Made by a program: the position numbers and the translations under genes
DNA from: Bacteroidia bacterium
Lineage (GTDB): Bacteria; Bacteroidota; Bacteroidia; Bacteroidales; Paludibacteraceae
Direction: 5' to 3'
Length of the DNA stretch: 64,000 nt
Assembly: GCA_009929375.1 (NCBI GenBank)
Contig: SAAO01000012.1
Span: forward strand, 1-64,000
Shown here: piece by piece, positions 35,320 through 49,714 of the stretch
Layout of the letters: the number at the start of each line of letters is the position of its first letter
How positions within the stretch are numbered: position 1 is the first letter of the stretch
The notes under the pieces: generated by a model
What the model was told of the DNA's origin: nothing
The model's input: the letters and a program-made list of their open reading frames with translations, nothing else
The model's database searches: none

Positions 35320-35344
35320 GGTAAATGAAATATGTTTTGAGCCG

Positions 35345-35375
35345 CAAAAATACAGATAATGTGGCAATTTGACAA
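35345..35375 (-). promoter_or_regulatory. queA promoter
   Basis: Minus strand: TTG (35375-35373), exactly 20 bases, then TATTTTTG (35352-35345). It decides the GTG start of queA and leaves a leader of about 20 bases, too short for a preQ1 riboswitch. Confidence 0.75.
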
Positions 35376-35676
35376 CAAGCGTCTTTTCTTTATCTTGGTC
35401 GGATAACACTATATTCACAGCATGTGGTTGAATCCCCATGCTCACGTTCAATCGGACGTCGCTACGCGACTTAAAGAGTGGGTAGTGCGGCGTTTTACAA
35501 CTGGTGCTTAGCCACGAGCGATTGCACTTACGTTAGGTTTTAACCCTATGCAATCTCAAATACATTTTTAGTTCCCTCGCTGCGGGATGACAAGGACAAT
35601 AAGGAAGGAGAATTCCGTCGCCCAACTGGTAGTGGGTTTGCAGAGATTTAGCGTGGCGACGGTGCAAAAAACACCT
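35376..35676. other. Left edge of the accessory island
   Basis: About 300 gene-free bases between the queA promoter and the island. They contain a GTCGC-tac-GCGAC palindrome near 35457-35470 and an inverted repeat CCGTCGCC (35615-35622) with GGCGACGG (35655-35662), which follows the last island gene by 14 bases and may be its 3' hairpin. No integrase or attachment repeat is visible. Confidence 0.5.
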
Positions 35677-36315
35677 TTACACTACTTCCACCTTCAACCC
35701 TAATCCCAACTTTTCGGAAATTTCCTCCAATTGCCGTTTCTTTTTATCAGTGGACGAATGGGTGAGAATAAGATAGTCGCCCGCAAGCTCGTGTTGATTG
35801 TAGAAATCATCGCGGGTTTTGCCGATAAAATCCAAGCCTACATGCTTTAACCCTAATGCTGCTACTTTTTGAATACCCACCGTTTCAACTACTTCAATCA
35901 GTGTTTCGTAAGCATATCGGTTATTGATAATTTTTCCATTAGGGAATGTGACTACCAAGCCAGTCCACGACGATTTTGGTGACGAAGTAATGGTTTTATC
36001 TGTCTTTTTTGTGCGCTCTTTGTTGGGTAGTGGAGCAAGCGAATATTGTTTGGTATCGCCTTCTTCGGTGATAACACGCTTGCGGGTTAAGCGCACACTA
36101 AGTGCTTCTCCCGGCACATAATCTACAACCAACACAATGGGGCGTTGTATTTGGGTGATTATGGGTTCGATGCTTTCGGATAATCGAGGAATGACTTCGT
36201 TTTTGATTAATTCTTCTTCAAGCTGGTCGGCTTTTTGAAGCATTTCTTCATTGAGAGATAAACCAACTTCTTTTGAATAATTGATTAGTTGATAGAGTTT
36301 TTCAAGTTTTGTCAC
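35677..36315 (-). CDS. 212-residue protein of unknown function, coupled to the EVE gene
   Basis: Start is GTG, overlapping the EVE stop as GTGA, so translation is coupled. Two parts are visible: a charged helical N-terminal half (about 1-50) with a KRVITEEGDTK beta segment after it, and a compact C-terminal domain (about 115-212) with WTGLVVTFPNGKII, an AYETLIEVVETVGIQKV helix, and a closing YLILTHSSTDKKKRQLEEIS block. The C-terminal domain looks like a nucleic-acid-associated module known beside restriction genes, but I cannot name it. It is the last gene of the island. Confidence 0.6.
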   Translation of the reverse strand: MTKLEKLYQLINYSKEVGLSLNEEMLQKADQLEEELIKNEVIPRLSESIEPIITQIQRPIVLVVDYVPGEALSVRLTRKRVITEEGDTKQYSLAPLPNKERTKKTDKTITSSPKSSWTGLVVTFPNGKIINNRYAYETLIEVVETVGIQKVAALGLKHVGLDFIGKTRDDFYNQHELAGDYLILTHSSTDKKKRQLEEISEKLGLGLKVEVV

Positions 36316-36716
36316 AGCGATAAATTGATTATTTGTTCAAATTCTTCTTTTTTTAAAGGCATTACAGCCAATCGAGGTTGTTTTATCAATCCAATGTTCT
36401 CCAATTCTTTTGTTGTTTTTATCTGACTTAATGAAATTGGGCTTTTAAATGTATTAACAGGTTCGAAAGTAACCGAAACCCAACGTGTATCTGCTGTTGT
36501 TGGGTCTTGGTGGGCTTCACGAATTACAATCATTTTGCCCATTATGCAATTCCCTTCCTGACTGTGATAAAACAGCACTTCATCGCCCAATCGCATTGCT
36601 TTTAGGTTATTCCGTGCTTGTGGGTTTCGGACAGAATAAATCTCGAAACTACCATTTCTCAATATTTCCTGCCAACTATAACGGAATGGGGCAAATTTTA
36701 CTAACCAATGTTTCAT
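36312..36716 (-). CDS. EVE-domain protein
   Basis: 134 residues forming a single EVE (PUA-like) domain: MKHWLVKFAPFRYSW at the N-terminus, VRNPQARNNLKAMRLGDEV (about 31-49), FYHSQEG (about 51-57) and a C-terminal PRLAVMPLKKEEFEQI block. EVE domains read modified bases in DNA or RNA and are often part of modification-dependent restriction systems. There is no fused nuclease here, so it would act with a partner, perhaps the coupled 212-residue protein. I start at ATG 36716, five bases after the transposase gene; a start at 36755 would overlap it. Confidence 0.85.
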   Translation of the reverse strand: MKHWLVKFAPFRYSWQEILRNGSFEIYSVRNPQARNNLKAMRLGDEVLFYHSQEGNCIMGKMIVIREAHQDPTTADTRWVSVTFEPVNTFKSPISLSQIKTTKELENIGLIKQPRLAVMPLKKEEFEQIINLSL

Positions 36717-36720
36717 AGTA

Positions 36721-37173
36721 TCAATCATCAAAAAGATATTTCTCATCGAATTCAATGCCGTTTTCTATAAGCAATGTACGAAGCTCATCTTCAAAAGTTA
36801 CTTTTTTGTGATGTTCTTTCTGAGATTTTATATAGTTTATTATCATATCTTTATCTTTCAAATTATATGAAATGCTGCAATATCCTTCTGCCCACGAGTC
36901 GAATTTTGGAAATTGCCCGGATGCTTTTATCCATTTATTTGTTGCTGTTTTTATTTCCTTTACAAAATCGCCAACACCAATACTTGAATGTAAATCACAA
37001 AAAATGTGGATATGGTTTTCAATACCATTTATTCTGTACAACACTGTTTTTCTGTTCTTTATAACACCAAAAATGTATTTATATAATTCTTCGTGATGGA
37101 CTTCTGGGAGTGTGTTTTTTCGGCTTTTAGTGCAAAATACAATGTGATGTAAGGACTGACGATAACTATTCAT
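36721..37173 (-). CDS. IS200/IS605-type Y1 (HUH) transposase, possibly a REP-associated tyrosine transposase
   Basis: 150 residues, Y1_Tnp family. The HUH metal motif is HIHIF in GIENHIHIF (about 50-58) and the catalytic Tyr is in NYIKSQKEHH (about 116-125). Such enzymes cut single-stranded DNA next to hairpins. It stands alone: there is no tnpB and the EVE gene follows within five bases, leaving no room for a normal right end of an IS200 element. The 200 bases upstream are packed with hairpins, which points to a domesticated, repeat-mobilising enzyme rather than a complete insertion sequence. Confidence 0.82.
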   Translation of the reverse strand: MNSYRQSLHHIVFCTKSRKNTLPEVHHEELYKYIFGVIKNRKTVLYRINGIENHIHIFCDLHSSIGVGDFVKEIKTATNKWIKASGQFPKFDSWAEGYCSISYNLKDKDMIINYIKSQKEHHKKVTFEDELRTLLIENGIEFDEKYLFDD

Positions 37174-37231
37174 ACGATTAAATGTTTGATTTGAAATTGT
37201 TAGTTTATGATTGCAAATGCAAATATAATAA

Positions 37232-37445
37232 AAACTCTGTAAGAGTTTGCTGTGCGTAACCCCCAGTGAAACTGGGGGATGTGCAAAAAACCAACATATA
37301 GAACTCCGTAGGAGTTCACTACCACTATCATAGTAATTTGCTGCTCGAGGGTGTTGGTAAACTCCTACGGAGTTTTTAGGTGTCTTTATTCTCTTTTTCC
37401 CCCAGATAAATCTGGGGGTTATGCAACGTAAACACCTACGGTGTT
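37232..37445. repeat. Mirrored hairpin mosaic (REP-like)
   Basis: Six short hairpins of two kinds. Type A: 37232-37248, 37301-37317, 37359-37375 and 37431-37445 (core AACTCC-GTA-GGAGTT; the first and last are variants). Type B: 37260-37278 and 37399-37418 (CCCCCAG and CTGGGGG arms). Loop GTA in the first two A units becomes TAC in the last two, so the order A-B-A is followed by its reverse complement. Conserved bases TAACCCCCAG join A and B in both halves. The block sits between the transposase and methyltransferase genes. Confidence 0.8.
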
Positions 37446-37449
37446 CTAT

Positions 37450-40400
37450 TTACCGCAAACCATACAATTCCAAGTAATCATCGCTCTTACCCAATGCCCG
37501 CAAGTTGGCTTTTTGGGCGGCCGATAGCTTGGGGTAACGCCTTGCATACCAGTTTTCTACTTCTTCCACATCTTCGGCATTTAATCCGTACGCTTCGTAC
37601 ACCAATTTGTCTATTTCGATTTGTTCGTGACTGGCGTAATCATATCGCGGGTTTGACTGTTGCTTTGAAATTATTATTTCAACTAATTTGTTTAATTTAG
37701 TGAGTCTAATAGTTATAGATAATTCCTTTTGGCAATCAACATGACTACTTACAGTATGATTAATTATTGTTCTCATAAAGAATTTACAAAGTTTTGAGGA
37801 TAATATTCCTAATAAAATTTCACTTTCTATCTTCGATATTATGGTCGAACCTTTTTGGTCAAATACAGAACTAAAATTCAATCTATAAGTTGGTGAATAC
37901 TCTCCTGTATCAGAAAATGAAATGCCTTTCAAAAAATAATATGGTTTATTTCTTGGATAAGGTTTTGTTGAATTTTCAAAAAGAAGTTTTTCGTTTATTA
38001 AAGCATCTGCACATTTTTCAGACCAATCAAGAAAATACTGTGCTTCAACATAGTAGTTAGGTAACCAACCTGCATTAGAGTCACTTTCTCCTCCTTTATC
38101 ATAAGGAATGATATATCTTCCTTCAAAATAACGATTTGATTTTTTATTGGTTCTGCTTATTCCTTTATTAATAATCTCATTACGTAATTTTTCATCATCA
38201 CGTATTGTAATTAAATCATCTTGTGTCATAAGAAATTCAGAATAATCATCAATGCTTCGATAATTACCACGCATTTCTGGGTTTTGAAATAAATATGAAT
38301 CGTTGTCTCCAGTTTGTAATCCAACTTTTACATCCGCTATATCCCCCAATTTTACCACTTCAATTTCTTTCCCATTCAATGTTATTGTTCGCACATCTAC
38401 TTGTTTTCCACCAATTTCTTTAATTTCTTTCATTGGTTTGTTAGTTGGGTCATTGCCATCATTCATTAGGGCAAACAATTTGGGTGACGCTACAAAAAAC
38501 GGCAAATTACTATTGGTACGAATTAATGATTGTGGATAGCGGTAAATGGCATATTCAGCATTTGAAATATCGGGTGCATTTTCCGCTATTTTTGTTTGGT
38601 TCAGTATTTCCACAAAGCGGTCGTAATTATCGTGTATGCTAATGTTGGTCATATCTGCCATTAGGCAAATGTGATTATCGTCCATTTCCCGTTGCGTATT
38701 CCGCTCTGCAATCATTATCACCGTATTTACCGTTGCACGGAAAGTGTCGGGGTGTACACGAATCATTTTGTGTACGTAGTTTTGCATCAGCAGTTTGCGG
38801 AGTGGCAAGTGACTTTTAATAGTCATAAACGTATCGCTTACAATAAATGCCAATATACCACCAGGTTTCAGAGGCGTTGGCGTTTCAAAATTGCTCAAAA
38901 ATCGGGCAATAAATGCACCGTAAGGGTCTTTGCTTTGAACCATTAAAGATGTGCATACATCGTCCGAAATTTTCATACCACCATAAGGGGGATTGCCCAT
39001 TACACAATCGAAACCGCCATGCTCTTTGAGTTCGGGAAAAAAGAAATCTACATTAAAAAATGGTGCAGCCAAGGTGCTGTGTGTAAACCAATGACGGAGT
39101 AATTCTTTGTTTTGTCCGCTTACACGCTTGCCTGTTATCTGAAATGAGAAGTTTGGAAATGCCGCATCTAAAATTTCTATAATCTCGTTAGCAATGGTTT
39201 CGCGTTCTTCGTGACTAATATCAGGTTGGTAATACTTTGCCCGAGCTTCAGTCAATTGCTCTATATATGCATCGCTAAACATGTCTGGTTTGGTGCTTTT
39301 CAAACTATCGGCACAAATAATTTTGGTTTCGATATTTGGCATGGGTGTAATGCCATTCTCCGTTTTCTGGTCGATAAGCAACGAAATGAAGAAACGTAAT
39401 TTGGTAATCTGAACTGCCATGGGTTGAATATCTATGCCGTAAATGCTGTCGCGGATGATTCCAAGTTTACGTCCATAGTCGTCGAGATGCGTACTGAGCA
39501 CTTTCTTAAATTCAGTTCGTTGGGCCACATCTACATTATTCAATTTCAATTCTATCCACAACTCATTATGTGGGTCAACCATTTTCAGAATATCTACCAT
39601 GCGATGCAACATACCCATTGGAAATGCTCCCGACCCGCACGCAGGGTCTAACATTTTGAATTTATCCAAACCATTCACTATCGCTTTGCAAAACAACTTG
39701 TTATCTGTATGTAGAATATTAAAATAGACTAAATCGCTTACTTGTTTGCGTATATTGGTCAGTGTGGGGTATTTATCGGTAATGTATTTTACAAGGTACA
39801 AAAACAAACTATCGTTTACCATTTCGAAAATATTTTTTCGTGGCGTATAATAACTTCCGGTTAGTTTTCGAATGCTTTTGATAGTACTTTCATCGAGGTT
39901 TGGGTCTAACTCAGCCAATAGGTTTTCGAATACCAATCCTAACATTTCGGGGTCGAGTGCAATATCTTCCTCGAATGGAGTGTTTTCGTCTAAAGTAAAT
40001 TTGTACGATTTCAGAATACCATTTAACCCTTTGTGTTCCACTGACTGGACTTCTGTTTTGGCTCTTGCTCCTCTACCTGTAGTTACTACTTCATCTATCT
40101 CGATACCATAAAACAGAAAGTTAGGTATATTAATGACGGCATCTTCTATGCTTTCTTTCGCATTATCTTCATCTAATTTATCAAAAATACCACCATTGAG
40201 ATAAGGTATTTGAGTGAACCATTCAATATCTAATTCGGGATGTAAATACTTTTTCCATCCAAAGTCTTTCATCGATTTCTTATCTTTTTGATTCAGAGCA
40301 TTGAAAAAGATATTTTGCAATACTCCCCGATAATACGAATTACTTTTCAGAAAATTCGCTTCGTCAATGTCAATGGTCAGTTTGTATTTATTTCCTTCCC

Positions 40401-41211
40401 AGTTCGTTAATTCAAGTAGCTGTGGTTTAATCAGTCCTTTTTCTTTTACAAACCAACAAAACAGAGTACGTGCTAATAGCCTGACTAAAAAGTTTTTAGT
40501 GTTTTCATTTGCGTCAATATAATTCGGTTTTATGGGTAGCTTAATATTCTGAATGGCATAATAAAACCAATCTTGTAAATCGCCATAAAACTGGTCGTTC
40601 AATGCTTGAACTGAGAATTTTGTTTGCCAAAATTTGTGTAGTTTATTATAAGAATCTACGTTTTGCCCTGTAATTTTTAAATCTGAAAGAATTTTCAGAT
40701 GAGCAGCATGTGTCTTTTCAACTACTATATCTTTCAGCATGGTGATTTTTCCAATTTTCTCACCATTACGCCATGTTTGCACATAATCTTTGCGTTCGGT
40801 TGTTGCAAAGGCAATTTCATTTCCATATTTAAAAACCACAGCCACAGGCATTTTCTTACTTATTCGGTTGAATGCGCGTGTGAGCTCGGACAGTTCGCTT
40901 CGGGTGGGTTGTTTGCTAAGTTCCAAGGCAAAAACCATCAAACCTTCGTAGCTTTTATCGCTTTCTTTGATGGCTTCGGTATAAGTGTACGACGAACTAT
41001 TTTCGGTCTGAAAAACGGCATTATCTACTAAACCAACAAAATAGGTTTTGGTTACGGAGTTGAAAATCAGATTCTCTTTGTAATATTCCCGAAGGACATC
41101 TTTTGCAGGAAGCGATTCGGAAGTATTGGAGTTTAAACGAATACCTAATTGTTCGAAAAAATTAGTTGTAGCTTCAAAAAGTGTAGCCGTTGAGAACAGA
41201 GATAAATTCAT
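37450..41211 (-). CDS. Eco57I-type N6-adenine DNA methyltransferase
   Basis: 1253 residues. The gamma-class adenine methyltransferase core has the SAM motif DPACGSG at 522-528 and the catalytic NPPY at 740-743, preceded by GSYYTPR (452-458) and YGIDIQPMAV (591-600). A C-terminal target-recognition region (about 940-1200) contains a LGDIADVKVGLQTGDN block typical of such domains. The N-terminal ~400 residues have an ELSKQPTRSELSELTRAFNR stretch (95-114) and an RNGEKIGKITMLKDI stretch, seen in methylases encoded with helicases; no PD-(D/E)xK motif is evident to me. It starts five bases after the helicase stop and probably marks host DNA for the system. Confidence 0.9.
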   Translation of the reverse strand: MNLSLFSTATLFEATTNFFEQLGIRLNSNTSESLPAKDVLREYYKENLIFNSVTKTYFVGLVDNAVFQTENSSSYTYTEAIKESDKSYEGLMVFALELSKQPTRSELSELTRAFNRISKKMPVAVVFKYGNEIAFATTERKDYVQTWRNGEKIGKITMLKDIVVEKTHAAHLKILSDLKITGQNVDSYNKLHKFWQTKFSVQALNDQFYGDLQDWFYYAIQNIKLPIKPNYIDANENTKNFLVRLLARTLFCWFVKEKGLIKPQLLELTNWEGNKYKLTIDIDEANFLKSNSYYRGVLQNIFFNALNQKDKKSMKDFGWKKYLHPELDIEWFTQIPYLNGGIFDKLDEDNAKESIEDAVINIPNFLFYGIEIDEVVTTGRGARAKTEVQSVEHKGLNGILKSYKFTLDENTPFEEDIALDPEMLGLVFENLLAELDPNLDESTIKSIRKLTGSYYTPRKNIFEMVNDSLFLYLVKYITDKYPTLTNIRKQVSDLVYFNILHTDNKLFCKAIVNGLDKFKMLDPACGSGAFPMGMLHRMVDILKMVDPHNELWIELKLNNVDVAQRTEFKKVLSTHLDDYGRKLGIIRDSIYGIDIQPMAVQITKLRFFISLLIDQKTENGITPMPNIETKIICADSLKSTKPDMFSDAYIEQLTEARAKYYQPDISHEERETIANEIIEILDAAFPNFSFQITGKRVSGQNKELLRHWFTHSTLAAPFFNVDFFFPELKEHGGFDCVMGNPPYGGMKISDDVCTSLMVQSKDPYGAFIARFLSNFETPTPLKPGGILAFIVSDTFMTIKSHLPLRKLLMQNYVHKMIRVHPDTFRATVNTVIMIAERNTQREMDDNHICLMADMTNISIHDNYDRFVEILNQTKIAENAPDISNAEYAIYRYPQSLIRTNSNLPFFVASPKLFALMNDGNDPTNKPMKEIKEIGGKQVDVRTITLNGKEIEVVKLGDIADVKVGLQTGDNDSYLFQNPEMRGNYRSIDDYSEFLMTQDDLITIRDDEKLRNEIINKGISRTNKKSNRYFEGRYIIPYDKGGESDSNAGWLPNYYVEAQYFLDWSEKCADALINEKLLFENSTKPYPRNKPYYFLKGISFSDTGEYSPTYRLNFSSVFDQKGSTIISKIESEILLGILSSKLCKFFMRTIINHTVSSHVDCQKELSITIRLTKLNKLVEIIISKQQSNPRYDYASHEQIEIDKLVYEAYGLNAEDVEEVENWYARRYPKLSAAQKANLRALGKSDDYLELYGLR

Positions 41212-41216
41212 AAGTT

Positions 41217-44200
41217 TTACTTGTTAGAGATTACAAACCAATTGATTAAATCGAAATTATCTTTTTTGTATTTATCTTCGAGTTTTTTCTGTGTAGGCGA
41301 AATTTTTTGAGGAGGCAATGTTCCTGAGAATAAATCCTGTATTTGATTTACCGAAACGGGTGCAGCCTGATTTTCGACCCATTGACTTACTGAGTTGGCT
41401 ATTTTGCTTAAAATAACCGAGTCGCCTTGTTCAATATTTCGAGGCACAAAGCGTGTTTCGGCTTTGTGCCATTTAAGAAAAGCAAGAATTTCCTGATTGT
41501 TGTTCAGCACCAATTCCTTTTTGCAGGAATCGTTATAGCAGTTATGTATCAAATGAATTTCATCATACACATGATTTTTAGCTTCGTCGGGGCGACGAGG
41601 ATAACCCAAAACAGCGATGACACTTTCGGGCATTTCGCGCCATTTTTTATTCGGGCGGAACTTAAAACCAGAATAAACGCCATTAGGTATTTTCTGAAAG
41701 AATTCTTCGTTCTTTTTGAAAAACTCAAATAATTCCTGTCGGAATTGCTCTAACGATAAATCATTAAGCCCTAGTGTTTCGTCGCTGGTTTCTAAATCGT
41801 CCCACGTAATTTGCAGTTGTTGCAGCATCTTTTGAGCTTGTTTGGGCAGTAATGGATTTTCTTCCACCATGCGTTCAAATTCGGGCGTTAGTTTATCGTC
41901 CAACTCCGTACCAACCACACTCATCAACGCCATTCGGTTTTCTACTCTCGATTTTAAGCGCAGGTAATCTTCGTAGTTTTTCCCCGGCCAAAAGTTAATG
42001 CCTTTTATTATTTTGTTGGGTGAACCCAAGCGGTCGATACGCCCCATGCGCTGAATAAGTCGAACCGGATTCCAATGTATGTCGTAATTTACTACCGTGT
42101 CGCAATCCTGCAAGTTTTGACCCTCGCTCAAACAATCGGTAGCAATCAGAATATCAATAGGTTGGTCAATCTTTTTGAAAGTGGTTTTGTCGTATTTTTG
42201 TACAAGTTCCAACCATTTTTCATACGACACTTTCCAACGTTCTCCATTTTTGTACTCGTTGCCCAAATTGGCTTGCGTGTACATCCAACTCCAATCTTTT
42301 TCGTTGTAGAGTTTAGTGAAAGGTGCAAATCGCTCCAATATCGGTTCAAACTTATTGCCAATATAGCCATCGTTCGTTTGGCTTATCGAACCCGAAACAA
42401 AAGCCACATTCCGGAATCCTTTGTTATTTAATTCGTCGTAAAGAAACTGGGCAGTGTCTTTAAATACGGTGAAAACCAATATCTTTTTGTTCTTTGATTT
42501 TTGCTTGGCTTGAATATGTTCTATCAGTTTATCTAACTTTTCATCGGTTGCATTTCCGGCTCTGTATGCTGTTTCGTATTGTTCCAGATTTACTTGTAGC
42601 TTTTTCAGTTTTACTACATCAGCTTCCAAGTGTTTACGAAATACATCAATATTGGTAATGGCAGAAAGTGATATTGGATTCTTTTTGCCCAATGTAATAG
42701 GTTGTATTTCTGCTTCGTTGTTTTCGGCAGCAGTTTCTTCTAATTCGTCCTGTTCATCTTCGGTAAACTCTTCTTCAAGTTCGGCATCTTCTTTCAATCG
42801 AATAAAAGTATCTACTTTGTTAAGTGCATTAATATGATGATTCAAGATGTTTTCTACTGTTACTTTAAACGAAAACCAACTGGATTCCAATCGTTTCATC
42901 AACAGCATATACATCATTTTTACCAAAAACTTTTCGCGTTGTTTGGGGTTTTCCAATACACTTTCTACTTTTAGGTCTTTAATGTATTCCGATGGGCGAT
43001 AGGCAGTTAAGTTTACACGCAAGGCATTTAAAATATCATCGAACGATTTTAAATCTCCAAAATTTTCGGGTGCTACATATTCGTTTATTGGGTCGGCTTT
43101 TCGGGGGAAGTTCATTTCGCCAAATTCGCCTTCAATCAGCTTTCGGGTTCGAGCAACTATTAATGCATCAGTTAGTTTCTCAAATTTTGCAGGGAGTTTA
43201 TTTATAAAGTCTGCAATTTTACGGTCGCTGGTAGCCGACCATTCACCAAAGTCCTTTTGTGCAGTTCGAAATACATTTTCGAGACTCTCAATTTCTAATT
43301 CCGAATCTTTAAAACCATCATCCAAACCCTTTGTCATCAATTTAAACTGATTACGAATGTCCATCAGTTTGTTATTGATAGGCGTAGCCGATAATTGCAA
43401 TACTTTTATGTCACGGTTTTTTCGCTCGGGCAACAACACTTTTTCCACCAAAAACTTGTATCGCGACGATTTGTCGTTGCGTAAGTTATGGCTTTCGTCA
43501 ATTACAATCAGTAGTTTTTGTTTGCGTTGTATTCGGCCCAAACTAAAGTCCGGATAATTTGAAGTGAGCCTTTCGTCCTGTAAATCGGTGTGATTGCGTA
43601 CAAAATATTCCAATTCATCATTGTCGAAACGGGAACCGCTATGTGCACGGTATTGCTCCCAGTTATTGCGAAGTTTTTTAGGACAAAACAGGATTACGGT
43701 ATATCCTTTTATTTCGAAATACTTCATTACAGCCAATGCAGTCCATGTTTTACCCAAACCTACAGCATCGGCAAGTATCGCTCCATTAAACTTTTGAAGC
43801 ATCTTAATCAGACTGATTGCTCCTTTTTGTTGATAAGGAAAAAGCGTTTTGTAAATATCAGTTTCTTCTAAGTGAGCAATTTCACGCTTGAACTCGGCAT
43901 CGGTCGAGAGCGAAAGTAAATCATCTTTGAAAAGTTCGTACAAAACCTTGTAATACAAATCGATAGGTTCCCAAGGCTTCCATAAGTTGGTAATGAGTTC
44001 AATTAAATGCTGTTTTACATCAACTCTTGTTTTGTCGGGCAATTCAATTTTATCTTCGGCAACTTTATCCCATTGATTTTTGAACCACTTTTTTAGCTCT
44101 TTAAACTCATTGTCGTTGCCGGTTGTGGCGGTATTTAATTCAATATTACTACTTTCTTTTAAACCTAAACCAGCATCAGTGAGATTGGAACTTCCAATAA

Positions 44201-44594
44201 TTTCGTAATTTTTACGTGCATCCTTATCGGTATAAATATAGGCTTTGGCATGACAAAAATTTCGTTGCGTTGATTTCACAGCAACTTTTTCTTGTTGTAA
44301 AAATTCTACTGCTTTGAGAGCTGAATTACTTAACGATAGCGTACTTTCAATACCCGCATCGCCATTTAGTAAATCAACTACACGGTTCAATTGATTTTCA
44401 TCCTGCATTAAATTTCCCAAAATCATACGGAATTTCTCAGCCTGATTCATTTCTTCGTGCATTAACGCAAGCGCATGCACCGAGAAAAATCCGGTAACTA
44501 AATCTAATTCACCCTTTTCGGTGTAATTTTTCAGAAAATCGAATACTTTGTAGTATTCACTGTCTTCCGTTTTGGTTTTGTTGTCAAGCAGCAT
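41217..44594 (-). CDS. PLD-nuclease/SNF2-helicase fusion protein
   Basis: 1125 residues. The N-terminal PLD-type domain has His115-x-Lys117 and GSSN at 134-137. The SF2/SNF2 motor follows: Walker A DAVGLGKT (276-283), DESH (366-369), SATP (402-405), and in lobe 2 TDCLSEGQNLQ with QRMGRIDR (848-855). An acidic insert (about 601-630) separates the lobes. This is the architecture of restriction and defence helicases that translocate on DNA and cut with a PLD active site. The three lobe-2 arginines and all ATPase motifs look intact. It lies 25 bases after the TPR gene and five bases before the methyltransferase. Confidence 0.9.
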   Translation of the reverse strand: MLLDNKTKTEDSEYYKVFDFLKNYTEKGELDLVTGFFSVHALALMHEEMNQAEKFRMILGNLMQDENQLNRVVDLLNGDAGIESTLSLSNSALKAVEFLQQEKVAVKSTQRNFCHAKAYIYTDKDARKNYEIIGSSNLTDAGLGLKESSNIELNTATTGNDNEFKELKKWFKNQWDKVAEDKIELPDKTRVDVKQHLIELITNLWKPWEPIDLYYKVLYELFKDDLLSLSTDAEFKREIAHLEETDIYKTLFPYQQKGAISLIKMLQKFNGAILADAVGLGKTWTALAVMKYFEIKGYTVILFCPKKLRNNWEQYRAHSGSRFDNDELEYFVRNHTDLQDERLTSNYPDFSLGRIQRKQKLLIVIDESHNLRNDKSSRYKFLVEKVLLPERKNRDIKVLQLSATPINNKLMDIRNQFKLMTKGLDDGFKDSELEIESLENVFRTAQKDFGEWSATSDRKIADFINKLPAKFEKLTDALIVARTRKLIEGEFGEMNFPRKADPINEYVAPENFGDLKSFDDILNALRVNLTAYRPSEYIKDLKVESVLENPKQREKFLVKMMYMLLMKRLESSWFSFKVTVENILNHHINALNKVDTFIRLKEDAELEEEFTEDEQDELEETAAENNEAEIQPITLGKKNPISLSAITNIDVFRKHLEADVVKLKKLQVNLEQYETAYRAGNATDEKLDKLIEHIQAKQKSKNKKILVFTVFKDTAQFLYDELNNKGFRNVAFVSGSISQTNDGYIGNKFEPILERFAPFTKLYNEKDWSWMYTQANLGNEYKNGERWKVSYEKWLELVQKYDKTTFKKIDQPIDILIATDCLSEGQNLQDCDTVVNYDIHWNPVRLIQRMGRIDRLGSPNKIIKGINFWPGKNYEDYLRLKSRVENRMALMSVVGTELDDKLTPEFERMVEENPLLPKQAQKMLQQLQITWDDLETSDETLGLNDLSLEQFRQELFEFFKKNEEFFQKIPNGVYSGFKFRPNKKWREMPESVIAVLGYPRRPDEAKNHVYDEIHLIHNCYNDSCKKELVLNNNQEILAFLKWHKAETRFVPRNIEQGDSVILSKIANSVSQWVENQAAPVSVNQIQDLFSGTLPPQKISPTQKKLEDKYKKDNFDLINWFVISNK

Positions 44595-44619
44595 AAATTC
44601 TTAGTATTAATGATTTCTT

Positions 44620-46596
44620 TTAATTCCCCCCATTTCTCACACCCCTTGCCAGCAGATATTCTTCGTGGTAGGGCAGTTGTAGTTGCATAAGTACTTCGGG
44701 TAAGGCTATAGCAAAGCTCACGTAGTAGTAGGCAAGTATTTGGTAGCCGCTGAATGTTTTGTTGGGTATCGTTTTTAGTTTGTAGCCTGTGAATTCAGGG
44801 TCGTAGCCTTTGGTGCCTTGTTGTGCTATGTCGAAAGCTATTTTTTTGATTTCCTCAGTTGGCATTCCTTCAAAATACTCTAAGGCTTCGACCATAAATA
44901 CTACTACTTCGGGGTTTGTGCCTTTTTCTTTTTGATTTTTCAGGAATATTTTTGTTTCGGCTTCCGGGTCAATAGTTTCATCGTTTGTTATTCCCAAAAA
45001 CTTTTCGAACACATTCAGTAACTCCTGTTGTTTGCTGTCTTTTGAGCGATGTGCATTTTCGTCAACAAGTTCAAAATAATCGCTCAACTGCAAATCATCT
45101 GCCCAATGTTGCACCAACTCATATTCTTCAGCCGGTTCTTTATCATCTTTGTATTGGAGATATTCTTCGAAAAAAGAGGTGGCTTGTTTTAACTCTGCGG
45201 TTGTGGGTTTAAATTCGCTCACTAAGTCAATTCCAAACAATTCCCGGAACTGCATGGCGTTAACCATGCTATATATTTTATTTTTTGATACAATTTCTTT
45301 TGGGGTAACTTCGGTTACTTTTTGGTCGGTTACCGACTGTATAGCTTCCATTAGTAAATTGTAAGCAGAAATAAACTGATAAGGTTGCAGTTCCTGAAAA
45401 TCGGTGTACAACATGTTTTCAACAAATAAATCGATGGGCGTATTATACACTAATAAATTCACGCCATCGAAAAGTCCGTTAATGTAGTTTGTAATCTGAT
45501 TTTCGGGCACTCCCATCCGCTTCAATTTCTGAACGGTGGGTTGCGTCCATTTGTCGAATGCATTTCTGTGCTTCGAATGCGAAACGAAAAGTTTGTTTAC
45601 ATCACTGTTTCGGGCATCAATAACCAATTTGAGATGCACCAATTCATGCATTATCAAATGTTCGATAGCCGGATAGTTTGGTTTAAATTTTACAGTGTGT
45701 TTTGTGGTATGGTAGTTTTCTGCAAATTCAAATTTTGCAGCAGTTAATATTTCTGCATCGGGTATTATTTCAATTTCCTTTCCGCACTCAATTTCAAGTT
45801 GTCGGCGATATTTCCTGTATGTTTTCTTTCCGGTATCGGTCGAAATAATATTTCGAGCAACAGAAAATGCCTGTCGAATGGAGTTATTGTATAGCTGATC
45901 TTTTACTTTGTTCAGTCTTATAGCTTGTACAGTACTGTAAAATGCCGATTGTAAATCATTTTCAATTTCAGCAATCATTCCCAATGCAAAATGTGTATTG
46001 GGGTAGTTGCTATTAATTTTCATTGCCTCCCCAAAGTATTTTTTTGCTTCAGCAATTTTCCCCTGCTGCATTAAGTTTGCGCCGATATTATTGAGTGATA
46101 TATTATCGTTCGGGTTGTTTTTTTGCGCCTGGTCATAATACTTCATTGCTGTTGTAATATCATCCCTGAATTTTGCAAATATATTACCCATCATAAGCAG
46201 TGCCCACGCATTTTTGGGGTTCCAGCGCAAAGCATCAATCAGGCAATTTATAGCCTCATCCTGGTCGCCTTCATCCGATAGAATTTGCCCCATTATGCGA
46301 TGATATTCCGAATTTGTAGGGTTTTCAGCTATAAGCTTCGTAAGGATAGGTTTCGCATCTTTGTAGTTGCCTTTCTCGCAAAGCGAAATGACACGTTGGT
46401 AATCTGTTTCGTGTCGTTGAATGGTGTTTATATCAATTTCAACAACTATCAGGTCGTTGTCAATTGTAACTTTAGGTTTGAATTGATTGTAGGTGTAATA
46501 ATCAGATAATGTTTTGATTATGTGATTATCGTCGCTGTTGGTAAGCTCGGGGAATAAAGTATATAGGAAGTCTTCCTTCGGAAAAATGATTTTCAT
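44620..46596 (-). CDS. TPR protein with an HExxH (zincin-like) domain
   Basis: 658 residues, first gene of the island operon. Residues about 65-235 form four or five TPR-like repeats (AWALLMMGNIF, IGANLMQQGKIAEAKKYF). Residues about 255-345 hold a zincin-like unit with HELVH at 317-321, a metalloprotease zinc-binding signature. The C-terminal ~300 residues are helical and unassigned. No signal peptide, so it is cytoplasmic. In this context it could be a protease effector or a TPR sensor, but I know no defence system with exactly this protein. A role in cell physiology cannot be excluded. Confidence 0.75.
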   Translation of the reverse strand: MKIIFPKEDFLYTLFPELTNSDDNHIIKTLSDYYTYNQFKPKVTIDNDLIVVEIDINTIQRHETDYQRVISLCEKGNYKDAKPILTKLIAENPTNSEYHRIMGQILSDEGDQDEAINCLIDALRWNPKNAWALLMMGNIFAKFRDDITTAMKYYDQAQKNNPNDNISLNNIGANLMQQGKIAEAKKYFGEAMKINSNYPNTHFALGMIAEIENDLQSAFYSTVQAIRLNKVKDQLYNNSIRQAFSVARNIISTDTGKKTYRKYRRQLEIECGKEIEIIPDAEILTAAKFEFAENYHTTKHTVKFKPNYPAIEHLIMHELVHLKLVIDARNSDVNKLFVSHSKHRNAFDKWTQPTVQKLKRMGVPENQITNYINGLFDGVNLLVYNTPIDLFVENMLYTDFQELQPYQFISAYNLLMEAIQSVTDQKVTEVTPKEIVSKNKIYSMVNAMQFRELFGIDLVSEFKPTTAELKQATSFFEEYLQYKDDKEPAEEYELVQHWADDLQLSDYFELVDENAHRSKDSKQQELLNVFEKFLGITNDETIDPEAETKIFLKNQKEKGTNPEVVVFMVEALEYFEGMPTEEIKKIAFDIAQQGTKGYDPEFTGYKLKTIPNKTFSGYQILAYYYVSFAIALPEVLMQLQLPYHEEYLLARGVRNGGN

Positions 46597-46628
46597 TGGC
46601 TTTAGCTTACGCTTTCAGCCATTGGTCA

Positions 46629-46677
46629 GATAAGATAAAACTTCACGGCATAAAAAAAGCGTGAGTCTTGTCTTATC
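46629..46677. repeat. Imperfect hairpin before the island operon
   Basis: Arms 46629-46647 and 46660-46677 (GATAAGA at one end, TCTTATC at the other) around a loop with seven A. On the minus strand it would read into the TPR gene leader. Confidence 0.6.
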
Positions 46678-46810
46678 CGCCACCAAGCCCCTCGCAAAGG
46701 CTACGCCAAAAGATAAGTCAAAATGACCCACGCCGTTTGGGGCGTGAGCATTTTGCTTAATCATTCTTTTTGGCGTTCGCTTTAAGAAATTTGCGAGGTT
46801 TCTGGTGGCG
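46678..46810. repeat. 133-base imperfect inverted repeat (MITE-like)
   Basis: Outer arms CGCCACCA (46678-46685) and TGGTGGCG (46803-46810), then CTCGCAAA/TTTGCGAG, CGCCAAAA/TTTTTGGCG and CAAAATG/CATTTTG further in, around a short CACGCC-gttt-GGGGCGTG tip. The sequence folds nearly end to end. It has no coding content and resembles a miniature mobile element or a structured leader. Confidence 0.65.
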
Positions 46811-46840
46811 CGAACAATAGCAGAATGCTATTTATTTAAT
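46796..46840 (+). repeat. Direct repeat with AATAGCA-gaa-TGCTATT hairpin, copy 1
   Basis: Shares AGGTTTCTG and GCGAACAATAGC with 47139-47182; from GCGAAC onward 30 of 31 bases are identical. The hairpin is at 46816-46832. Confidence 0.75.
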
Positions 46841-47138
46841 ATGTTTTGAAAAATTCAGTTTGTAATCTATAATCTTTATTTTTTATTCGTTTTTTATGAT
46901 AGAGACGCAATGTATTGCGTCAGTACGTTAATGTAATTTATTTTTGTTTTATATTCAGCCTTAGGTTCGCTGGCAAATTTGCTTTGAAACTTTGCCAATT
47001 CGTACAAATATTCAGGAGCAAAGTCGGCAGCATTTTTTCTGTTACTTATATACTATGTAAAAGTCTTTTAAAAAAAACTTTGCCTTTAAGTGGTACAGAT
47101 ATACTTCCATTCATTTATCAAATTATATTTATTCTTTA

Positions 47139-47182
47139 AGGTTTCTGTTAAGCGAACAATAGCAGAATGCTATTTAATTAAT
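47139..47182 (+). repeat. Direct repeat with AATAGCA-gaa-TGCTATT hairpin, copy 2
   Basis: Second copy, 342 bases downstream of the first, in the same orientation; hairpin at 47158-47174. Confidence 0.75.
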
Positions 47183-47435
47183 CTATTGAGAAATACTTGT
47201 CCGTTTTTAAGCAAAGAGGCATGTTCCTTGTGCGAATTTTTGAAGCTATTATATTCTCCACCCCTTACAGTTGCAATCGCAAATATACAAAAAATTAAGA
47301 TGGGAAAATCGAAGCCTTGTGTTTTTTTTTACAAAAAAAAACATCAAGAGCTTTTTGGGAAAACGTCTTGACATTATAACTAAAACATCGGGAAGTTTTA
47401 GCCAAATCATCGGGAGGAATTTGAGCACACTAAAC

Positions 47436-47480
47436 AAAAAAAGAGCACCTGTCGGTGCTAACTAAACAACTGACAGGTGC
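47436..47480 (-). terminator. Terminator of the HU-like gene
   Basis: GCACCTGTC (47445-47453) and GACAGGTGC (47472-47480), followed on the minus strand by seven T (47442-47436). GCACC-tgtc-GGTGC offers a shorter alternative hairpin in one arm. Confidence 0.75.
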
Positions 47481-47532
47481 CTTAAAAAAACTAATACGGT
47501 ATTTTTTTTTGCAGTGACCGAAAACTGCTGCG

Positions 47533-47919
47533 TCACTGTTTCGAAGCAACGCTGAACTTCAACTGCTTGAGACCCGACTGAATGCGTGGCCCCGGCCGAA
47601 AGAGTACACGGGTACGTCGTACCTGTGTGCGGGTTGCTTCGGCTTCTGTATCGACTCCTTCGCTGTTTATCGACAGCTGGAACGACCCGAAACTACCAAA
47701 ACGAATGATTTTGCCGTCCATCAGGTGTGCCGTCATTTCGCGTGTCAGCGCACTTAACACAGCCAAAACATCCGTTTCGGTAAGTGTACACTTTTCCGAG
47801 ATTAATTCTGACATAGTGTCAAGGGTAATCTCACCCGAGCTTTTTGTACTCACGTAGTATTTACGTGGCGCGTTCAAATCCTTAGGATTCGCACGCTGTA
47901 CGATTGATAAATTAATCAT
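47533..47919 (-). CDS. HU-like DNA-binding protein
   Basis: 128 residues of the Bacteroidetes HU-like family (HU-HIG or viral histone-like type). After a variable start it has LDTMSELISEKCTLTETDVLAVL, here as shorter blocks, then GKIIRFGSFGSFQLS, the beta arm of HU folds, and a basic TRTQVRRTRVLFRPGP segment. It binds DNA without known specificity. ATG 47919 is chosen because the promoter (47960-47990) leaves a leader of about 35 bases; the longer frame from 47955 would start at the transcription start. Confidence 0.85.
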   Translation of the reverse strand: MINLSIVQRANPKDLNAPRKYYVSTKSSGEITLDTMSELISEKCTLTETDVLAVLSALTREMTAHLMDGKIIRFGSFGSFQLSINSEGVDTEAEATRTQVRRTRVLFRPGPRIQSGLKQLKFSVASKQ

Positions 47920-47925
47920 AAAAAA

Positions 47926-47963
47926 TTTGCAGTGAGGGATGGTTAGTCTCACCACACTGCAAA
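47926..47963 (-). promoter_or_regulatory. Inverted repeat at the HU-like promoter
   Basis: TTTGCAGTG (47926-47934) and CACTGCAAA (47955-47963), with further pairing inside. One arm overlaps the -7 element, the other lies in the leader about seven bases before the ATG. Could be an operator or a leader hairpin controlling translation. Confidence 0.5.
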
Positions 47964-47990
47964 TGTATAGAAATAATTTATATTATACAA
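47960..47990 (-). promoter_or_regulatory. Promoter of the HU-like gene
   Basis: Minus strand: TTG (47990-47988), exactly 20 bases, then TACATTTG (47967-47960). Full consensus match. Confidence 0.75.
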
Positions 47991-48347
47991 GTTAATGATA
48001 GACAATATCTATATAGATTGTAGTTTTATCTGGTATTTAACGATATTTAACTGTTTGCTGGCGTTAAATTATATAGATAAGGATAATTGAAGGGATTCAG
48101 CGATAGCTTTCGGCTATAAAAAGACAGTGCAAATATAGATATATTTATTGTAAATAACAATTGATAGTGATAAAATGTATAAGTGTTTTGGTTGTTGTCT
48201 CGAACGAAGTGTGAGATTTCATTCGAATTATCAAAATAAATTTTAACGCACAACAATGTCTATGTTACAAATACTAATGACTATGACTGAATAAGTTACT
48301 TTATCTTTTTGCCTTAGATATTATAGAACTCGTCTTGACTTTTTTAT

Positions 48348-48480
48348 GGACACAGTAGCAATACATAGGTTTTTAGATTAAAATCTGAATTTTCGACCAC
48401 AGTAGCTAAAAATATCTTTGATATTTTTGAACTATGTGTACTTTTTTCTATTAAAATACAACTACTGTGAACTATGTGTC
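48348..48480. repeat. Cluster of short direct and inverted repeats
   Basis: CACAGTAGC at 48351-48359 and 48399-48407; its inverse CTACTGTG at 48462-48469; TGAACTATGTGT at 48428-48439 and 48468-48479; and a perfect hairpin AAAAATATC-ttt-GATATTTTT at 48408-48428. Confidence 0.65.
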
Positions 48481-48512
48481 AAAAGTTGAGATAACTTCAT
48501 AGTATTTTGTTG

Positions 48513-48520
48513 TATTTTTG
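48513..48520 (+). promoter_or_regulatory. -7 element of the DUF2027/Smr gene
   Basis: TATTTTTG, 121 bases before the ATG. A TTG lies 24 bases upstream, not the ideal 20. Confidence 0.4.
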
Positions 48521-48640
48521 TCGGTCAGTAGTGTAAATTCTTTCGATGAATGAGTCCGAAAGAAGTAAAAATAATAAGCAATGGAATGTCGCTGGAAATG
48601 TAAAACCCGCGTATGTCAATGCTCAAAATAATAATTAGTT

Positions 48641-49714
48641 ATGATTAAAAAAGGTGATAATGTGCGTTTTCTCAACGCAGTAGGAGGAGGGACTGTGGTT
48701 CGTATTGATGCAGATAAAAAACTGATATATGTGGAAGATGCCGATGGTTTTGAAATTCCTGTGCTCGAGCGCGAATGTGTGGTGATTGGCGAAGTAAATG
48801 AAAAGACTAATTTTATAAAGAAAGATTTTTCTTCCAAAGGGAATACTCCGGCTGCAGAGCCTGTGTCGGTTGAATCTGAAAAACCTAAAGTCAGAATTCA
48901 GGAACCGGTTGTGGAAACACCCGAAGGCGATGTGCTGAAAGCTGTGCTTGCTTTCTTTCCGGTGGATATTAAACAGCTGCAAACTACGGCATACGATTGT
49001 TATCTGGTGAACGATAGCAATTATTTTCTGTATTATAACCTGATAAATGGCGAAGAAAATGTCCGCCGCACTGTAGCACACGGACTTATTGAGCCTAATA
49101 TGCAGGAAGAACTTTGCTCGCTGACAAAAGAGCAACTCAACGACTGGGAAAATATCCGTGTTCAGATCATCCCATTCAAACAGGGGAAGTCGTACCCGAC
49201 CCAGGATGTGATTAATGTGAAAATCAAAATGAATGTGGTACGATTCTATAAACTGCACAGCTTTACCGAAAACGATTATTTCGACGAGCCTGCCATGATT
49301 GTTGACATTGTGGCGGAAAAGGAAAACGCCCGACTTGCAGCCGTGTCGCCCGACGATATTAAAAAAGCGATGCTCAGCAAAGAAACGCCAGCTTTACCCC
49401 GCAAAATTGTGAGCAAGCCTAATCAACGTCCGGGTGTGACCGAAATTGATTTGCATATTACCGAATTGGTGGATACCACTGCCGGAATGAGCAATGCCGA
49501 TATGCTGCAACTGCAAATGGATAAGTTTCACGCAGCTCTCAGCGAATACAAAAATCAGAAAGGTCACAAACTCGTGTTTATACATGGTAAGGGCGAGGGC
49601 GTTTTGCGCAAGGAAATTGAGAAACAACTCAAAACGCGCTACAAAACTTATTATTTTCAGGATGCCTCATTCCGTGAATACGGATTCGGCGCCACTATGG
49701 TGACGATAAAGTAA
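48641..49714 (+). CDS. DUF2027 protein with C-terminal Smr domain
   Basis: 357 residues. The N-terminal part (about 1-60, KKGDNVRFLNAVGGGTVVRI) is a small beta-barrel of the KOW/SH3-like kind; the DUF2027 region covers about 80-250; the C-terminal Smr domain (about 275-357) has LDLHI-like EIDLHITEL and the HGKGEGVLRKEI motif. Smr domains are nicking nucleases or RNA cleavers, as in MutS2. No MutS ATPase part is present. Possible role in DNA or ribosome quality control; not established for DUF2027. Confidence 0.88.
   Translation: MIKKGDNVRFLNAVGGGTVVRIDADKKLIYVEDADGFEIPVLERECVVIGEVNEKTNFIKKDFSSKGNTPAAEPVSVESEKPKVRIQEPVVETPEGDVLKAVLAFFPVDIKQLQTTAYDCYLVNDSNYFLYYNLINGEENVRRTVAHGLIEPNMQEELCSLTKEQLNDWENIRVQIIPFKQGKSYPTQDVINVKIKMNVVRFYKLHSFTENDYFDEPAMIVDIVAEKENARLAAVSPDDIKKAMLSKETPALPRKIVSKPNQRPGVTEIDLHITELVDTTAGMSNADMLQLQMDKFHAALSEYKNQKGHKLVFIHGKGEGVLRKEIEKQLKTRYKTYYFQDASFREYGFGATMVTIK

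What the first reader, a model, noticed from the sequence alone, without database searches (positions are those of the whole stretch)
37450..46596. Candidate modification-based defence operon: TPR-zincin, PLD-SNF2 helicase, Eco57I-type methyltransferase
Seen: three minus-strand genes spaced 25 and 5 bases apart, with intact helicase, PLD and methyltransferase motifs. Known: DISARM combines a SNF2 helicase, a methylase and a PLD protein, and BREX has an Eco57I-type methylase (PglX). Here none of drmA, drmB, pglZ or brxC is present, and the PLD and helicase are one chain. Inference: a compact restriction system in which the methylase protects the host and the fused motor-nuclease attacks unmodified DNA, with the TPR-zincin as a third component.
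Basis: partly seen in the sequence, partly recalled or inferred. Interest (0 to 1): 0.78.

Follow-up and report, generated by a model that had tools for sequence, protein, structure and literature searches.

The report
RNA switch heading bacterial restriction operons
A three-gene bacterial defence operon that looks like a restriction system (a DNA-cutting motor plus a protective methylase) is preceded by an uncatalogued, strongly folded RNA that sits in front of many different restriction systems in related bacteria, and its first gene, a probable protease, is a swappable part found at the head of other defence operons.

Summary
In detail: three tight minus-strand genes with intact motifs. The reading is partly right. 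(1) The PLD-SNF2 helicase and the Eco57I-type methyltransferase form a conserved restriction-modification (R-M)-like pair. (2) The TPR-zincin is not a fixed third component: among 80 related loci it stands before Schlafen-helicase/MazG, McrBC, type I, type III, BREX and SNF2 systems, and between close relatives DNA homology stops at its stop codon while the downstream system changes. In 57 distinct aligned copies 96.3% of pair cells pair, 369 cells changed on both sides (shuffles 86). It has no Rfam match. In this genus 48 of 48 strong copies examined precede a co-directional gene; 42 of 48 lead to R-M (or TPR-zincin) genes of several types. Its 3' tail can instead pair with the apical hairpin as a terminator, so I infer a conditional terminator gating R-M expression. 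A divergent branch leads mostly to other genes (SusC/SusD-like, secreted) across Bacteroidota. Fold: near certain. Cis-leader: likely. Switch and signal: inferred.

The parts
46653..46832 (-). structured leader RNA: P0 hairpin, long P1-P2-P3 arm capped by conserved P4 hairpin, 3' tail ending CACGC plus poly-U; 56 nt before the TPR-zincin start
   Evidence: fold z-score -8.4 for 46580-46860; 62 cells with both-sided change in 11 copies, shuffles 16.3; 369 in 57 distinct copies, shuffles 85.9; model match 170.9 bits (the window copy is in the model); no Rfam match
46653..46734 (-). segment that can fold instead as an intrinsic terminator (P4 3' strand paired with 3' tail, then U-run), mutually exclusive with P4
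   Evidence: 14 alternative pairs, 96.6% of cells paired (shuffles 95.1), 7 pairs with both-sided change (shuffles 2.2; slid versions 0-5); -33.1 kcal/mol for this segment, -24.5 for P4 alone
47139..47193 (-). partial copy of the RNA's 5' end (P0 hairpin and GUUCGC) about 340 bp further upstream
   Evidence: own-genome match 89% over 47139-47182 and 84% over 47139-47193; 42-nt direct repeat, spacing 342
44620..46596 (-). TPR-zincin: TPR repeats about residues 70-230, putative gluzincin-like metallopeptidase with HELVH 317-321 and E393
   Evidence: Pfam TPR; invariant motif in 47 sequences; AlphaFold2 mean pLDDT 85.4
41217..44594 (-). N-terminal PLD (HKD) nuclease domain fused to SNF2-type helicase
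   Evidence: Pfam; PADLOC C3a139 'HKD+Snf2' 2.2e-76; motifs
37450..41211 (-). Eco57I-type (type IIG/PglX-like) adenine methyltransferase
   Evidence: Pfam Eco57I 4.8e-20; PADLOC REase_MTase_IIG 1.2e-44; DPACGSG and NPPY

Best explanation
The locus is a mobile restriction-modification-like cassette inserted between queA and a DUF2027/Smr gene. Its core is the PLD-SNF2 motor nuclease plus the Eco57I-type adenine methylase: the methylase marks self DNA, and the motor-nuclease attacks DNA without the mark. The TPR-zincin is an interchangeable head module that occurs in front of many restriction-type systems and more likely controls or responds for the operon than takes part in the restriction reaction. 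The whole operon is read through a ~180-nt structured leader RNA. That RNA can adopt a P1-P4 arm (antiterminator) or a terminator hairpin just before the first gene, so it gates transcription. The same RNA precedes type I, II, III and PLD-SNF2 R-M operons in this genus, so it is a common expression gate for restriction. Shown: the conserved fold, the co-directional placement, the R-M association of the strong branch, the swapping of the head module. Inferred: cis action by attenuation, the signal, the TPR-zincin's role, the restriction activity itself.
For: RNA: 95.6% of cells paired, 18 pairs and 62 cells changed on both sides in 11 copies (shuffles 10.2 and 16.3; slid structures 3-11 and 3-14); 34 pairs and 369 cells in 57 distinct copies (shuffles 19.1 and 85.9; slid 11-18 and 27-44). 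RNA rather than DNA: G-U pairs 190 against A-C mismatches 32 (alternative helix 115 against 6); the sense strand folds more stably in 50 of 55 copies. Placement: 48 of 48 strong copies followed by a co-directional ORF (ORFs of 90 aa or more; opposite-strand ORFs under 150 aa ignored), 31 of 48 at 25-70 nt. Downstream: first genes carry EcoRI_methylase 9, N6_Mtase 9, Eco57I 9, N6_N4_Mtase 8, ResIII 8, SNF2 5, TPR 4, PLDc_2 4 of 48 (overlapping counts); second genes ResIII 13, GmrSD_N 9, HNH 7, Eco57I 7 of 37; 42 of 48 copies lead to R-M or TPR-zincin genes by sequence motif or cluster. Terminator alternative. Module swapping. Pair conservation. Island: queA and DUF2027 lie 10 bp (L184) and 285 bp (L189) apart in same-genus genomes, 13.2 kb apart here.
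Against: No transcript, methylome or phage data. A divergent branch of the RNA leads to R-M in only 1 of 40 weaker copies examined (L331); others lead to SusC/SusD-size or secreted-protein genes, so the RNA's signal need not be about restriction. Six of 48 strong copies have no R-M motif in the first two genes (L206, L259, L261, L267, L276, L278); L261 is at a contig end and L259 is saved only by likeness to L249's first gene. The motif test is coarse. Covariation for the terminator pairing is modest (11 cells; one slid control gives 8). The enlarged alignment A6 was fitted to the model, so its pair counts lean to the structure. Promoter-like and terminator-like consensus sites in the region are at chance level. 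Among the 80 TPR-zincin loci only 3 (L113, L115, L123) have the RNA in leader position.
Confidence: 0.6

Rival explanations
1. The RNA is an independent trans-acting small RNA with its own terminator that merely lies upstream of R-M genes.
For: It ends in a U-run as a finished sRNA would; several copies per genome (up to 15) could act in trans.
Against: 48 of 48 strong copies examined are co-directional with the next gene, 31 of them 25-70 nt before it; variable P1-P3 arms argue against a shared base-pairing target; a second, competing pairing of the tail is conserved.
Confidence: 0.2
2. The element is a DNA recombination or transposition site (attC-like or MITE-like) that shuffles defence cassettes; its hairpin matters as single-stranded DNA.
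For: Tandem arrangement element - small genes - element - R-M in L242, L243, L249; multiple copies per genome; sharp exchange boundaries of the head module.
Against: G-U pairs far outnumber A-C mismatches and the sense strand is usually the more stable; U-run on one strand; constant orientation; exchange boundaries lie at the TPR-zincin stop codon, not at the element; the divergent branch precedes SusC-like genes.
Confidence: 0.13
3. The TPR-zincin is itself an effector or sensor protease of the defence system (activated on infection), as the first reader's 'third component' implies.
For: It usually lies beside defence genes and close to them (55 of 65 co-directional neighbours within 60 bp), with an invariant catalytic motif in 47 sequences and HExxH found in all 80 ORFs.
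Against: Partners are unrelated systems and change between close copies (L113/L115/L123); the same pair occurs without it elsewhere (L044, L209, L031-L034). In L162 and L169 the neighbours tested are not recognised defence genes.
Confidence: 0.4

Closest known systems
DISARM class 1 (DrmD helicase with DrmMI methylase)
   Same: SNF2 helicase beside an Eco57I-type adenine methylase (gene order of DISARM recalled)
   Different: DrmD model scores 137.8 against a cut-off of 610; PLD fused to the helicase; drmA and drmB not among the neighbours scanned
BREX-related Type-2 systems (Rakesh and Krishnan 2026, PMC12839542)
   Same: HKD nuclease fused N-terminally to a Swi2/Snf2 helicase, with an N6 methylase, proposed R-M-like action (section 30)
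   Different: come with a DUF499 ATPase and DUF3780, neither matched here
Type IIG / PglX methylases (BREX)
   Same: the methylase's best PADLOC model is type IIG; weaker PglX matches
   Different: BREX PglX models far below cut-off (55.4 of 900; 41.6 of 400)
PLD-SNF2 with DUF4391 and type III-like Mod/Res
   Same: homologous PLD-SNF2 helicase
   Different: partners are DUF4391, a methylase and a DEAD/DEAH helicase (L101 annotation; homologues in L036, L038-L041 by BLAST)
Flavo-1 RNA (RF01705) and other Rfam RNAs of Bacteroidota
   Same: structured RNAs of the same phylum; structured 5' regions reported in F. psychrophilum (PMC9723704, passages)
   Different: no Rfam family matches the window copy (E up to 5); a divergent copy's region gave only two near-chance snoRNA matches
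Attenuator/riboswitch leaders in general (recalled)
   Same: structured 5' region with a conditional-terminator pairing ahead of an operon
   Different: no known family matched; downstream genes are R-M systems of several types in this genus
CapH/CapP and ImmR/ImmA (repressor plus zincin protease; recalled)
   Same: a small gene that I read as XRE-like lies just before the zincin gene in some loci (12 of 80 within 800 bp by similarity to three examples; not tested by Pfam)
   Different: TPR-zincin has TPR repeats; membership of M78 not tested; no such gene seen before the window copy

Membership tests
DISARM | DrmD helicase at family cut-off | tested here: not met
   137.8 bits against 610
DISARM | drmA and drmB in the locus | tested here: not met
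   none of the four neighbours scanned matched any model; the helicase itself matched one DrmA model at 60.7 bits, as a helicase would
BREX | PglX at family cut-off, with brxC and pglZ | tested here: not met
   55.4 of 900 and 41.6 of 400 bits; none of the seven neighbours scanned with Pfam is BrxC or PglZ
BREX-related Type-2 | DUF499 ATPase and DUF3780 | tested here: not met
   no such Pfam match among the ten proteins scanned; definition from PMC12839542 section 30
Restriction-modification (works like) | DNA methylase with SAM and catalytic motifs beside a motor nuclease, kept together across genomes | tested here: met
   motifs; pair in 7 of 8 informative close homologues
Restriction-modification (works like) | host methylation and restriction of unmodified DNA | not testable with these tools
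   needs a methylome and plating assays
Known Rfam RNA family | match to a covariance model | tested here: not met
Structured RNA | conserved pairing with compensatory changes above shuffled and slid controls | tested here: met
Conditional-terminator leader | mutually exclusive terminator and antiterminator pairings, both conserved | tested here: met
   alternative helix 96.6% paired (shuffles 95.1) with 7 co-varying pairs (shuffles 2.2)
Conditional-terminator leader | the switch changes downstream transcription | not testable with these tools
   needs transcription assays
Zincin metallopeptidase | HExxH plus third ligand, invariant | tested here: met
   H317, E318, H321, E393 invariant in 47 sequences; third-ligand role inferred
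Zincin metallopeptidase | peptidase fold | tested here: inconclusive
   the 50 Foldseek rows shown for the whole model, as I read them, align the TPR part; the job on the C-terminal part was not accepted

The most novel reading that the evidence does not exclude
Restriction systems of several types in these Bacteroidales share one RNA-based master gate: a self-contained RNA switch that holds each R-M operon at a terminator until a cellular state tied to infection or to fresh acquisition of the cassette stabilises the antiterminator arm. A swappable TPR-metalloprotease module supplies a second, protein-level control. Cassettes then exchange effectors behind a standard RNA (and protease) control head, a plug-in control layer for bacterial immunity.
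Probability: 0.3. Interest if true: 0.92.

Novelty: new variant of a known kind. Interest (0 to 1): 0.8.

Why it matters
How R-M genes are switched on safely in a new host and during infection is an old question; the answers I recall are C proteins, antisense RNAs and promoter logic. A shared leader RNA in front of type I, II, III and PLD-SNF2 systems would give one testable switch for restriction as a whole, and the covariance model gives a way to find R-M operons by their RNA. The swappable TPR-zincin suggests that control modules, like effectors, travel between defence systems.

Tried and rejected
Rejected: membership of DISARM, BREX or BREX-related Type-2 (scores and gene content). Rejected: TPR-zincin as an obligate partner. 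Put lower: DNA recombination site or MITE (strand asymmetry), trans-acting sRNA. The attC reading was dropped because the conserved ends run GUUCGC...GCGAAC rather than the attC order (recalled). Foldseek on the full TPR-zincin gave TPR proteins in the rows shown. A PDB sequence search with the methylase gave nothing at E 0.001. Nine literature searches (PLD/SNF2/methylase defence, zincin or TPR with BREX or R-M, MazG with Schlafen, CapP/CapH, R-M leader RNA, structured RNA with SusC, RNA regulation of restriction) listed no paper that, from title and start of abstract, describes either module; two of them found no paper at all. Read in part only: PMC12839542 (outline, passages, section 30, section 35 part 1), PMC7641849, PMC12458937, PMC11090510, PMC9723704, PMC2864571 (passages). 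Absence from print is claimed no further than those searches. The quick tree of the TPR-zincin with partner labels (64 of 79 rows labelled, some by cluster only) needs at least 24 changes; 200 label shuffles gave 27-33, so partners swap often but are partly inherited.
Full report
What is there. The genome is a 3.87-Mb assembly in 122 contigs. The RNA copies in L113, L115 and L123 have the same coordinates as matches in genomes of the window's genus, and their record titles say Paludibacter, Porphyromonadaceae and Bacteroidales, so I take the host to be a Bacteroidales bacterium (inference).

The island. Of eight same-genus regions fetched, queA and the DUF2027/Smr gene lie next to each other in L184 (10 bp apart) and L189 (285 bp), while in the window 13.2 kb lies between them (34099-35451 and 48641-49714); L185, L187, L188 and L190 hold other genes there; L186 and L191 were not clear. 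This is a variable insertion spot. Besides the operon the insert holds an IS200-like transposase, an EVE-domain gene, an unassigned gene and an HU-like gene.

The core pair. Of nine close helicase homologues (42-68% identity by BLAST), seven carry a homologue of the methylase next door or within a few genes (L031-L034; L353, L354 and the Planktothrix plasmid L100); L355 does not and L006 is cut by its contig. More distant helicases (about 25-34% identity) come either with a methylase homologue (L035, L042-L044, L046-L049) or with Mod and Res homologues of the Enterococcus locus (L036, L038-L041); L037 and L045 are cut by their contigs. A two-gene R-M-like unit is therefore conserved. No drmA/drmB, brxC/pglZ, DUF499 or DUF3780 was matched among the neighbours scanned (the last two define BREX-related Type-2 systems, PMC12839542 section 30).

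The TPR-zincin. H317, E318, H321 and E393 are invariant in 47 sequences, the window's included, and the AlphaFold2 model has mean pLDDT 85.4. A genome scan confirmed 148 relatives and kept the best 80. All 80 ORFs contain HExxH; of the 73 with at least 300 bp of sequence beyond the gene, 65 are followed by a co-directional gene, 55 of these within 60 bp. In 38 of the 73 a MazG-like gene is among the first four downstream genes, together in 30 with the cluster of Schlafen-group-3 helicases and in 7 with the McrBC cluster (members tested by Pfam, the rest by cluster). Others are type I (L107, L123, L157), type III (L129, L143, L156, L164, L182), BREX (L165, and L140 by cluster; convergent in L120 and L146), SNF2 with Eco57I methylase (L147, L148) and PLD-SNF2 (L113). 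Not every copy fits: in L162 and L169 the neighbours tested are not recognised defence genes, and several loci were not resolved. Between near relatives the DNA matches to the TPR-zincin stop and no further: L113 and L115 (92.7%) and L113 and L123 (79%) match to 4 bp past the stop, yet go on into PLD-SNF2, plain SNF2 and HsdR. L104 and L105 match to within 7 bp of the end of MazG and then go on into Schlafen helicase and McrBC. The window's similarity to L113 (66%) runs from 438 bp before the start to 18 bp past the stop. It is a swappable head module.

The RNA. The conserved stretch before the TPR-zincin is strongly folded (z -8.4, 0 of 200 shuffles as stable). Eleven copies fold separately into one architecture (L210 the least alike). 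On the 11-copy alignment 95.6% of cells pair, with 18 pairs and 62 cells changed on both sides (shuffles 10.2 and 16.3; slid versions 3-11 and 3-14). With 60 matches (57 distinct) it is 96.3%, 34 pairs and 369 cells (shuffles 19.1 and 85.9; slid 11-18 and 27-44); that alignment was fitted to the model. G-U pairs outnumber A-C mismatches 190 to 32 and the sense strand is more stable in 50 of 55 copies, which speaks for RNA. Rfam has no match to it at gathering score, none up to E = 5 for the window copy, and only two near-chance snoRNA matches for a divergent copy's region.

Where the RNA sits. By BLAST it is in 6 of 150 family genomes, all of the window's genus. By model, 29 of 48 genomes of the genus have it, up to 15 copies each. 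I examined 48 of the 51 strong copies there (123 bits or more; three in G523 were not fetched). All 48 are followed by a co-directional ORF (ORFs of 90 aa or more, opposite-strand ORFs under 150 aa ignored): 31 at 25-70 nt after the U-run, 3 closer, 7 further, and in 7 the longest reading of the ORF runs back into the RNA. First genes match EcoRI_methylase 9, N6_Mtase 9, Eco57I 9, N6_N4_Mtase 8, ResIII 8, SNF2 5, HSDR_N_2 4, TPR 4, PLDc_2 4 of 48 (overlapping); 37 second genes match ResIII 13, GmrSD_N 9, HNH 7, Eco57I 7, Methylase_S 4. By motif in the first two genes, 41 of 48 carry a methylase, helicase or TPR-zincin signature (4 of these are TPR-zincin-headed, the window among them); L251 joins by cluster, making 42; L259 would make 43 by likeness to L249's first gene; L206, L267, L276 and L278 do not fit and L261 is at a contig end. 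In L044, L209, L265 and L266 the RNA leads straight into helicase and methylase; in the window and L113 a TPR-zincin stands between.

A wider family. Across the phylum 45 of 395 genomes and 21 of 171 genera have a match. Of 40 weaker copies examined (20 from the phylum search, 20 from the genus search), one leads to an R-M system (L331, type I; L345 has a bare motif in its second gene that I do not count). Thirteen have a first gene of 989-1011 aa like that of L310, which is a SusC homologue (the only one tested); many of the others begin like secreted proteins or lipoproteins (my reading). The R-M link therefore belongs to the strong branch in this genus. This weakens any claim that the RNA senses restriction itself.

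How it most likely works. The 3' tail can pair with the 3' strand of the P4 hairpin to make a terminator ending in the U-run; 14 alternative pairs are 96.6% paired (shuffles 95.1) with 7 co-varying pairs (shuffles 2.2, slid 0-5) and 11 cells (shuffles 3.0, slid 0-8), and the segment folds at -33.1 kcal/mol against -24.5 for P4 alone in the window. P1-P4 and the terminator exclude each other, so I infer attenuation: the R-M operon is read only when the arm wins. The signal is unknown. The TPR-zincin's position and promiscuity fit a control role; some relatives have a small gene that I read as XRE-like just before it (12 of 80). The restriction step (methylase protects, PLD-SNF2 attacks) rests on family knowledge.

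Verdict. Observation confirmed; interpretation partly supported. The unreported RNA and the module behaviour of the TPR-zincin are the more interesting results.

Noticed in passing
window 35452-48640: 13.2-kb insert between queA and a DUF2027/Smr gene; the spot is variable in the genus.
   Followed up: partly
window 36312-37173: EVE-domain gene (36312-36755) and IS200-like Y1 transposase (36721-37173) downstream of the methylase, same strand.
   Followed up: no
L242, L243, L249: Tandem order RNA - small genes - RNA - R-M operon, with a weaker RNA copy 1-2 kb before the strong one. Small genes before the RNA look like DUF4160/DUF2442 and MNT/HEPN toxin-antitoxin pairs (names recalled from sequence, not tested).
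   Followed up: partly
L104, L105, L125, L133 and others (38 loci): Recurrent operon TPR-zincin + MazG-like protein of about 109 aa + Schlafen-group-3 helicase or McrBC, genes often overlapping or within a few bases; searches found no paper with these terms together.
   Followed up: partly
L310-L312, L315, L317, L318, L323: Divergent copies of the RNA about 210-280 nt before genes of SusC size in other Bacteroidota (L310 tested).
   Followed up: partly
own genome contig C49 (L196 9415-9592) and C67 (L329 6046-6211): Second strong RNA copy in the same genome leads to HsdM and HsdS; a weak copy on C67 leads to a 486-aa gene of unknown role.
   Followed up: partly
L354 3659-7041: The closest helicase homologue (68% identity over one piece) is broken into three reading frames.
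   Followed up: no
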